This document shows positions 40,664-40,810 of a stretch of DNA of 64,000 bases, in pieces. The stretch lies in the IMG/VR virus record IMGVR_UViG_3300032770_000009, positions 1 through 64,000 of that record; one strand, written 5' to 3'. How positions within the stretch are numbered: position 1 is the first letter of the stretch; every line of letters begins with the position of its first letter. This DNA comes from a virus. Below the pieces are notes generated by a model. The model made no database searches and was not told where the DNA came from. It worked only from the letters and a program-made list of their open reading frames with translations. The position numbers were made by a program, and so were the translations under genes.

Positions 40664-40810
40664 TGCCTAGAGTATACTGCGGTCACAGTATAGTTTCGTA
40701 AAGCTCTACCATTAAGCTACACCGGGAAGAAGCCCCGGCGTCAGGATTCGAACCTGAATCTCTTGATTAACAGTCAAATTGAAGTAACTGTGTACCTTTG
40801 CACCTAGGCA
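40664..40810 (-). ncRNA. Y-RNA-like unit Y8 with permuted tRNA-Asn(GUU)
   Basis: Outer stem UGCCUAG/CUAGGCA, GUGCAAAG loop, inner stem GGUACACAG/CUGUGACC with one bulge, then UUACUUC. The domain is a complete tRNA in permuted order: anticodon arm (UUUGA-CUGUUAA-UCAAG), T arm (UCAGG-UUCGAAU-CCUGA), acceptor 3' strand, 7-nt loop, acceptor 5' strand CCCGGUG, D arm (GCUU-AAUGGUA-GAGC). The break is between D and anticodon arms. This is the clearest case in the array. Confidence 0.92.

What the first reader, a model, noticed from the sequence alone, without database searches (positions are those of the whole stretch)
40664..40810. Y8 holds a complete permuted tRNA-Asn beside a normal tRNA-Asn gene elsewhere
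Every arm of tRNA-Asn(GUU) is intact, including D loop AAUGGUA and T loop UUCGAAU. The normal tRNA-Asn(GUU) at 52750-52822 has a different sequence, so Y8 is not a simple recent copy. Retention of all arms argues for selection on tRNA identity, as in a decoy for a tRNase or a modification enzyme.
Basis: partly seen in the sequence, partly recalled or inferred. Interest (0 to 1): 0.8.

Follow-up and report, generated by a model that had tools for sequence, protein, structure and literature searches.

The report
Y RNA carrying a scrambled complete tRNA
A phage small RNA that sits beside the gene for its partner protein Ro60 contains a complete transfer RNA with its halves in swapped order; the same design recurs in many phages and soil bacteria, where the three-letter code-reading site keeps changing while the loop that holds it stays tRNA-like, so it probably imitates tRNAs in general rather than tRNA-Asn.

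Summary
Y8 (minus strand, 40811-40663) contains every arm of a circularly permuted tRNA-Asn(GUU); put back in order, ARAGORN calls it tRNA-Asn. It is the eighth of ten Y RNAs, interleaved with tRNA genes, upstream of a Ro60 gene (38656-40299). Y RNAs with permuted tRNA-like domains are known. The published type and the Rfam model lack a closed anticodon arm. In 245 related units from 159 phage and bacterial loci, a 5-bp hairpin beside the T arm has a 7-nt loop 102 times (13 expected); neighbouring loop sizes stay at chance. The stem covaries strongly, U33 is in 99 of 102, and base 37 follows base 36 as in real tRNAs, so anticodon arms are maintained. tRNA-Asn identity is not. Y8's body does not resemble tRNA-Asn, and among 25 Streptomyces orthologs positions 34-35 are the most variable of 54, with anticodons for Met/Ile, Ile, Lys, Arg, Thr and Asn on one fixed backbone. 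Best reading: a Ro60-displayed generic tRNA mimic, engaged by enzymes that act on anticodon arms. An anticodon-nuclease decoy is possible but unproven. Caveat: energy folding of Y8 alone prefers another hairpin. New variant of a known kind; the founding Y RNA papers could not be read here.

The parts
40663..40811 (-). Y8: Y RNA with a complete circularly permuted tRNA-like domain (tRNA-Asn anticodon)
   Evidence: 8-bp closing stem UUGCCUAG/CUAGGCAA, conserved GGUGC...UUACUUC motif, all tRNA arms; weak Rfam YrlA hit 26.9 bits
40762..40778 (-). Y8 anticodon arm UUUGA-CUGUUAA-UCAAG, anticodon GUU at 40769-40771
   Evidence: loop identical to real tRNA-Asn loops; 5-bp/7-nt arm matches the family pattern; energy model alone disfavours it
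40741..40757 (-). Y8 T arm UCAGG-UUCGAAU-CCUGA
40720..40740 (-). Y8 acceptor stem CGCCGGG/CCCGGUG closed by linker GCUUCUU (no free 3' end, no CCA)
40703..40717 (-). Y8 D arm GCUU-AAUGGUA-GAGC
41909..41990 (-). Y1: Y RNA without recognisable tRNA arms
   Evidence: closing stem ACTCAGG/TCTGAGT and motif
41726..41820 (-). Y2: Y RNA without recognisable tRNA arms
   Evidence: closing stem TGTTCTAG/CTAGAACA and motif
41636..41717 (-). Y3: Y RNA without recognisable tRNA arms
   Evidence: closing stem AATCTGGG/TCCAGATT and motif
41388..41519 (-). Y4: Y RNA with degenerate T/D-arm-like parts
   Evidence: closing stem GTTCAGG/TCTGAAC and motif; read by eye
41196..41348 (-). Y5: Y RNA with closed anticodon arm (CAAAA-CUAUCAA-UUUUG), T arm and acceptor stem; D arm not recognisable
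   Evidence: closing stem ATTCCTAG/CTAGGAAT; weak tRNA hit 24.8 bits
40988..41114 (-). Y6: Y RNA holding a tRNA in normal order with anticodon UUA; acceptor uses the ACUUC motif
   Evidence: ARAGORN tRNA-Stop(tta) 41018-41090, Rfam tRNA 50.8 bits, closing stem AGTCAAGG/TCTTGACT; relative L012 has GUA there
40819..40979 (-). Y7: Y RNA with permuted tRNA-like domain; 3-bp anticodon stem with loop AUGCGGA
   Evidence: closing stem TAATCCAG/CTGGATTA; L012 ortholog keeps the loop with a compensatory stem change (read by eye)
40541..40649 (-). Y9: Y RNA with a T-arm-like hairpin
   Evidence: closing stem TCCTGG/TCAGGA and motif
40402..40531 (-). Y10: Y RNA with T arm, acceptor, D-like hairpin, then anticodon arm UGGGA-CUCAUAA-UCCCA (40448-40432, anticodon CAU): a different permutation point
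   Evidence: closing stem TTACTTTG/CAAGGTAA; arm found; MFE fold contains it
38656..40299 (-). Ro60 (TROVE + VWA) protein, presumed partner of the Y RNAs
   Evidence: Pfam TROVE 1.2e-20, VWA_2 6.7e-8; phrog_850; 33-40% identity to Ro-like proteins of actinophages
52749..52822 (-). normal tRNA-Asn(GUU) gene of the same phage
   Evidence: ARAGORN, Rfam tRNA 64.9 bits
53196..53660 (-). PNKP-type phosphatase (possible RNA end repair)
   Evidence: Pfam HAD_PNKP 1.6e-33; role in this system is inference

Best explanation
Y8 is a Ro60-associated Y RNA. Its outer helix and the GGUGC...UUACUUC motif form the presumed Ro60-binding part; its loop end is a full cloverleaf tRNA mimic whose chain is cut between the D arm and the anticodon arm and whose acceptor ends are joined by a short loop, so it should not be charged with an amino acid. 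The mimic is generic rather than Asn-specific. Selection keeps a tRNA-like anticodon arm (7-nt loop, U33, base 37 matched to base 36), while the decoding bases 34-35 drift or are switched. The likeliest use is to present a tRNA look-alike, held by Ro60, to enzymes that act on tRNA anticodon arms, as substrate, bait or competitor. Shown: architecture, conservation, covariation, anticodon turnover. Inferred: Ro60 binding, lack of charging, enzyme engagement and benefit to the phage.
For: Ten Y RNAs each with its own 6-8-bp closing stem, upstream of Ro60. Among 245 unique units in 159 loci, 5-bp hairpins with 7-nt loops number 102 against 13.4 in shuffles, while loops of 3-6 and 8-11 nt lie near chance; first set 44 vs 5.6, second set 48 vs 5.5. 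Stem covariation score 0.961 against 0.287 shuffled and at most 0.18 slid. U33 in 99/102; A34 in 1/68 loops with U36. Mutual information of 36-37 is 0.888 bits against 0.18 shuffled (p < 1/3000), while pairs involving 34 or 35 are at shuffle level; 18 of 41 distinct loops equal a real phage tRNA loop against 8.6 expected. All 99 reordered U33 units are called tRNA by ARAGORN. Anticodon turnover: 34 and 35 are the two most variable of 54 columns in 25 Streptomyces orthologs, 13 changes on the Ro60 tree against 13.8 shuffled. In the window Y6 and Y10 keep complete anticodon arms in two other chain orders.
Against: Energy folding gives the Y8 anticodon arm under 1% occupancy and averages 0.28 over 99 units. 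No ortholog of Y8 itself was found; in the closest relative examined (L012) other Y RNAs match but not Y8. The 36-37 rule could partly be inherited from tRNA ancestors rather than kept by selection. Expression, Ro60 binding and any enzyme contact are untested. The Y8 unit scores far below Rfam's YrlA threshold (26.9 against 69), as do the other phage units scored.
Confidence: 0.6

Rival explanations
1. Anticodon-nuclease decoy: Y8 and its kin soak up or block host tRNases that cut particular anticodons; anticodon switching tracks which nucleases a host deploys.
For: Complete anticodon loops with natural anticodons, fast turnover at 34-35 on a fixed backbone, several different anticodons in one phage; phages are known to counter tRNases with tRNAs (PMC10264068); competitive inhibition by YrlA was proposed in PMC7790460.
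Against: Position 34-35 variation is equally expected from relaxed constraint. Few Y loops have A36 (6 of 99), although from general knowledge several mycobacterial VapC targets (Trp, Ser UCN, Cys) do. In Salmonella YrlA, whose family model lacks the arm, was not cut (PMC7790460). The design is also found in many Streptomyces genomes, so it is not only a phage weapon.
Confidence: 0.28
2. Substrate mimic for position-37 modification enzymes: the loop is kept so that t6A37 (U36-A37) or m1G37 (G36-G37) machinery recognises the Y RNA, for stability or for titrating the enzyme.
For: 36-37 is the only strongly coupled pair in the loop; 34 and 35 are free. U36-A37 plus G36-G37 make up 81 of 99 loops. 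DusA and TruB are reported to modify YrlA (PMC8394870).
Against: C36-A37 and A36 loops also occur; the coupling also exists in tRNAs for translational reasons and could be inherited; no modification data.
Confidence: 0.28
3. Functional permuted tRNA gene: the RNA is circularised and processed into a charged tRNA-Asn, as for permuted tRNA genes of algae and archaea.
For: Same gene order, 3' part before 5' part with a short intervening sequence; ARAGORN accepts the reordered sequence.
Against: Anticodon changes without change of body would mischarge or miscode; acceptor ends are often joined by 4-nt UUCG loops; bounded by a Y stem; the phage has a normal tRNA-Asn.
Confidence: 0.04
4. Relic: tRNA pieces captured by Y RNA genes and decaying, with the anticodon arm carried along without function.
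For: Y4, Y5, Y7 and Y9 look degenerate; Y RNAs and tRNA genes are interleaved.
Against: Strong compensatory covariation and loop rules across hundreds of units, on backbones shared by different anticodons.
Confidence: 0.08

Closest known systems
YrlA-type bacterial Y RNA with tRNA-like domain (Rfam RF02553; Chen et al. 2014, Wang et al. 2018, known here only through citing papers)
   Same: Encoded beside Ro60; 5' and 3' ends paired; T, acceptor and D arms in permuted order with acceptor ends joined (PMC8394870)
   Different: RF02553 has a short split stem in place of the anticodon arm and no anticodon loop; Y8 and its class have a closed complete anticodon arm 5' of the T arm and score below the Rfam cut-off
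Circularly permuted tRNA genes of red/green algae and archaea (e.g. PMC3978253, listed, not read)
   Same: 3' portion encoded before 5' portion with a short spacer at the acceptor ends
   Different: Embedded in a Y RNA stem; body lacks matching identity; anticodon changes between orthologs; no sign of processing
Phage tRNAs with altered anticodon loops that resist host tRNases (PMC10264068)
   Same: Phage tRNA-related RNA with a possible role against anticodon nucleases, in tRNA-rich actinophages
   Different: Those are ordinary charged tRNAs that replace cut ones; Y8 would act, if at all, as bait or inhibitor
tmRNA
   Same: Non-coding RNA with a tRNA-like domain recognised by tRNA enzymes
   Different: No alanine-accepting end, no mRNA part, and here an anticodon arm is present

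Membership tests
Bacterial Y RNA (YrlA type) | Encoded next to a Ro60 (TROVE) gene | tested here: met
   Y8 ends about 360 nt upstream of the TROVE/VWA ORF, same strand
Bacterial Y RNA (YrlA type) | 5' and 3' ends form a closing stem with a conserved Ro-binding strand | tested here: met
   Perfect 8-bp closing stem; each of the ten units has its own pairing stem and the GGUGC...ACUUC motif. Ro60 binding itself not tested
Bacterial Y RNA (YrlA type) | tRNA-like domain with T, acceptor and D arms in permuted order | tested here: met
Bacterial Y RNA (YrlA type) | Match to Rfam RF02553 at the gathering score | tested here: not met
   26.9 bits against 69. Other phage units also fail (30 to 56 bits), so this is a limit of the curated model rather than a defining trait
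Bacterial Y RNA (YrlA type) | Tethers Ro60 to an effector such as PNPase | not testable with these tools
   needs biochemistry
Permuted tRNA gene | All tRNA arms present, 3' part before 5' part | tested here: met
Permuted tRNA gene | Body identity consistent with its anticodon | tested here: not met
   Y8 body nearest Thr/Pro/Arg, Asn not favoured; orthologs swap anticodons on one body
Permuted tRNA gene | Processed into a charged tRNA | not testable with these tools
   needs RNA from infected cells
Anticodon-nuclease decoy | Presents an intact natural anticodon loop | tested here: met
   by sequence; energy folding disagrees for Y8
Anticodon-nuclease decoy | Conserved match to the target tRNA of a nuclease | tested here: not met
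   anticodon varies among positional orthologs
Anticodon-nuclease decoy | Bound or cut by such a nuclease | not testable with these tools
   needs assay

The most novel reading that the evidence does not exclude
Y RNAs of actinobacteria and their phages form a diversifying repertoire of anticodon-bearing tRNA decoys: a fixed Ro60-held scaffold on which the anticodon is switched from strain to strain, in an arms race with anticodon nucleases, and which phages have multiplied into arrays with several anticodons and at least three chain orders.
Probability: 0.25. Interest if true: 0.88.

Novelty: new variant of a known kind. Interest (0 to 1): 0.64.

Why it matters
What the tRNA-like half of bacterial Y RNAs does is unknown. 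A widespread class with maintained anticodon arms, a base-37 rule and freely changing anticodons points to partners that read anticodon arms. It gives direct experiments, such as position-37 modification, nuclease protection and anticodon swaps in Streptomyces. It also means that some annotated phage tRNAs near Ro60 are Y RNAs.

Tried and rejected
Recent copy of the phage tRNA-Asn: 51 of 73 aligned positions identical and body nearer other tRNAs. Fixed Asn identity: anticodon turnover. Split anticodon stem in Y8 as in classical YrlA: no pairing found. Anticodon arm on the 3' side as a general class: not enriched, 2 seen against 5.9 expected; Y10 in the window is the clear single case. Excess of 12-nt-loop hairpins (36 vs 12.4): mostly scattered pairings with G-U within the same class II units, not pursued. 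RNA ligase in this contig: no PF09414 or RtcB match; the PF09511 search is uninformative because its control rang nowhere. A direct protein search of viral contigs found nothing; an alignment query was needed. Chen 2014, Sim 2018 and 2020 and Wang 2018 are not held, so whether anticodon-bearing Y RNAs were noticed before could not be checked.

Full report
What is there. The window is part of a 116,568-base virus record from IMG/VR with 33 tRNA genes. On the minus strand between 42000 and 40400, tRNA genes alternate with ten units that share the motif GGUGC...ACUUC. Each unit closes with its own pairing stem of 6 to 8 bases. Directly downstream lies a Ro60 gene with TROVE and VWA domains. These are Y RNAs. 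Reordered, it is called tRNA-Asn(gtt) by ARAGORN. The phage's ordinary tRNA-Asn at 52749-52822 is a different sequence.

Comparison set. Ro60 proteins of the window and nine actinophages were aligned and used to fetch 80 loci from viral contigs, 80 more with another lead sequence (overlapping the first) and 80 from bacterial genomes. A script looked for permuted tRNA-like units (T arm, acceptor, linker, acceptor, D arm) without using the anticodon arm; shuffled sequence gave 1 hit in 350 kb. After removing duplicates there are 245 units in 159 loci.

Two architectures. In one, the strand after the D arm pairs with the strand before the variable loop, so the anticodon stem is split and runs into the Y stem; this is the structure of the Rfam YrlA model. 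In the other (class II, to which Y8 belongs) a complete closed anticodon arm precedes the T arm. The second is not an artefact of looking for hairpins: 5-bp hairpins at that place have 7-nt loops in 102 units against 13.4 in shuffles, and loops of 3-6 or 8-11 nt stay near chance. This was seen first in the phage set (44 vs 5.6) and repeated in the bacterial genomes (48 vs 5.5). On 43 distinct arms the stem gives a covariation score of 0.961, against 0.287 in shuffles and at most 0.18 when slid. An example outside the actinobacterial set is Xanthomonas phage 10KY502B, which has one unit of each kind.

What the loop obeys. U33 is present in 99 of 102. Base 37 follows base 36 as in tRNAs (U-A, G-G), with mutual information 0.888 bits among 41 distinct loops against 0.18 shuffled; bases 34 and 35 are independent of everything. 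Eighteen of the 41 distinct loops equal a loop of a real phage tRNA, against 8.6 by column shuffling. A34 is nearly absent when base 36 is U (1 of 68).

What it does not obey. The anticodon is not fixed. GUU is the commonest (17 of 99), followed by CAU, GCU, GAU and UCU. In 25 Streptomyces orthologs with an almost invariant backbone, bases 34 and 35 are the most variable of 54 columns, between invariant U33 and U36. On the Ro60 tree the anticodon changes 13 times, as often as after shuffling (13.8); that tree is only partly resolved. The body of Y8 is nearest to tRNA-Thr, Pro and Arg bodies, and the best tRNA-Asn comes seventeenth.

Other units in the window. Y6 holds a tRNA in normal order whose acceptor uses the ACUUC motif and whose anticodon is UUA; the counterpart in the relative L012 reads GUA and is called tRNA-Tyr. 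Y10 has its anticodon arm (CUCAUAA, anticodon CAU) on the far side of the D arm, a third chain order, and its minimum-energy fold contains the arm. Y5 and Y7 hold further anticodon-arm-like hairpins. Different permutations that keep the same arm suggest that the arm matters.

Mechanism. The acceptor ends are joined by short loops, so charging is not expected, and orthologs that swap anticodons on one body could not serve as faithful tRNAs. The simplest account is a tRNA look-alike held by Ro60 and seen by enzymes that act on anticodon arms. Two specific versions compete. The modification reading fits the 36-37 coupling with free 34-35. The nuclease-decoy reading fits the natural anticodons and their turnover, and follows the suggestion already made for Salmonella YrlA (PMC7790460). 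The present data do not separate them.

Weak points. Energy folding of naked Y8 favours another hairpin over the anticodon arm (-53.6 against -47.9 kcal/mol), and over all class II units the mean predicted occupancy of the arm is 0.28. No ortholog of Y8 itself was found. Related sequences are not independent, so counts overstate evidence. Nothing here shows transcription or binding. The main Y RNA papers were not available, so novelty is stated relative to the Rfam model and two citing papers.

Verdict.

Noticed in passing
window 41018-41090 (-) and L012 4184-4257: A normal-order tRNA lies inside a Y RNA; anticodon UUA (would read the stop codon UAA) in the window and GUA (Tyr) in the relative.
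   Followed up: partly
window 40402-40531 (-): Y10 keeps the anticodon arm (CAU) after the D arm, a permutation point not seen clearly in any other locus.
   Followed up: partly
L090 3896-3969: Another normal-order tRNA (Thr, UGU) whose acceptor stem uses the Y RNA motif UUACUUC.
   Followed up: no
L004 7679-7769, L009 5783-5856, L010 5772-5846, L257 2711-2778: tRNAs annotated in GenBank phage records just upstream of Ro60 (Pro, Ser, Arg, Thr) overlap Y RNA units and are probably not tRNAs.
   Followed up: partly
L255 6815-7072: Rfam permuted tmRNA (57.2 bits, above threshold) in Brevundimonas phage Marchewka, a few kilobases from its Ro60 gene.
   Followed up: no
window 42404-43417 (-): A second VWA protein (phrog_26613, unknown function) lies directly upstream of the Y RNA array.
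   Followed up: no
window 53196-53660 (-) and 46362-46865 (-): PNKP-type phosphatase and a HAD_SAK_2 protein linked to RNA repair; no RNA ligase recognised in the contig.
   Followed up: partly
L258 4636-4779: A 144-base tRNA-model match (46.6 bits) just downstream of the TROVE gene in Bacteroides phage crAss001; it may join parts of two Y RNAs.
   Followed up: no
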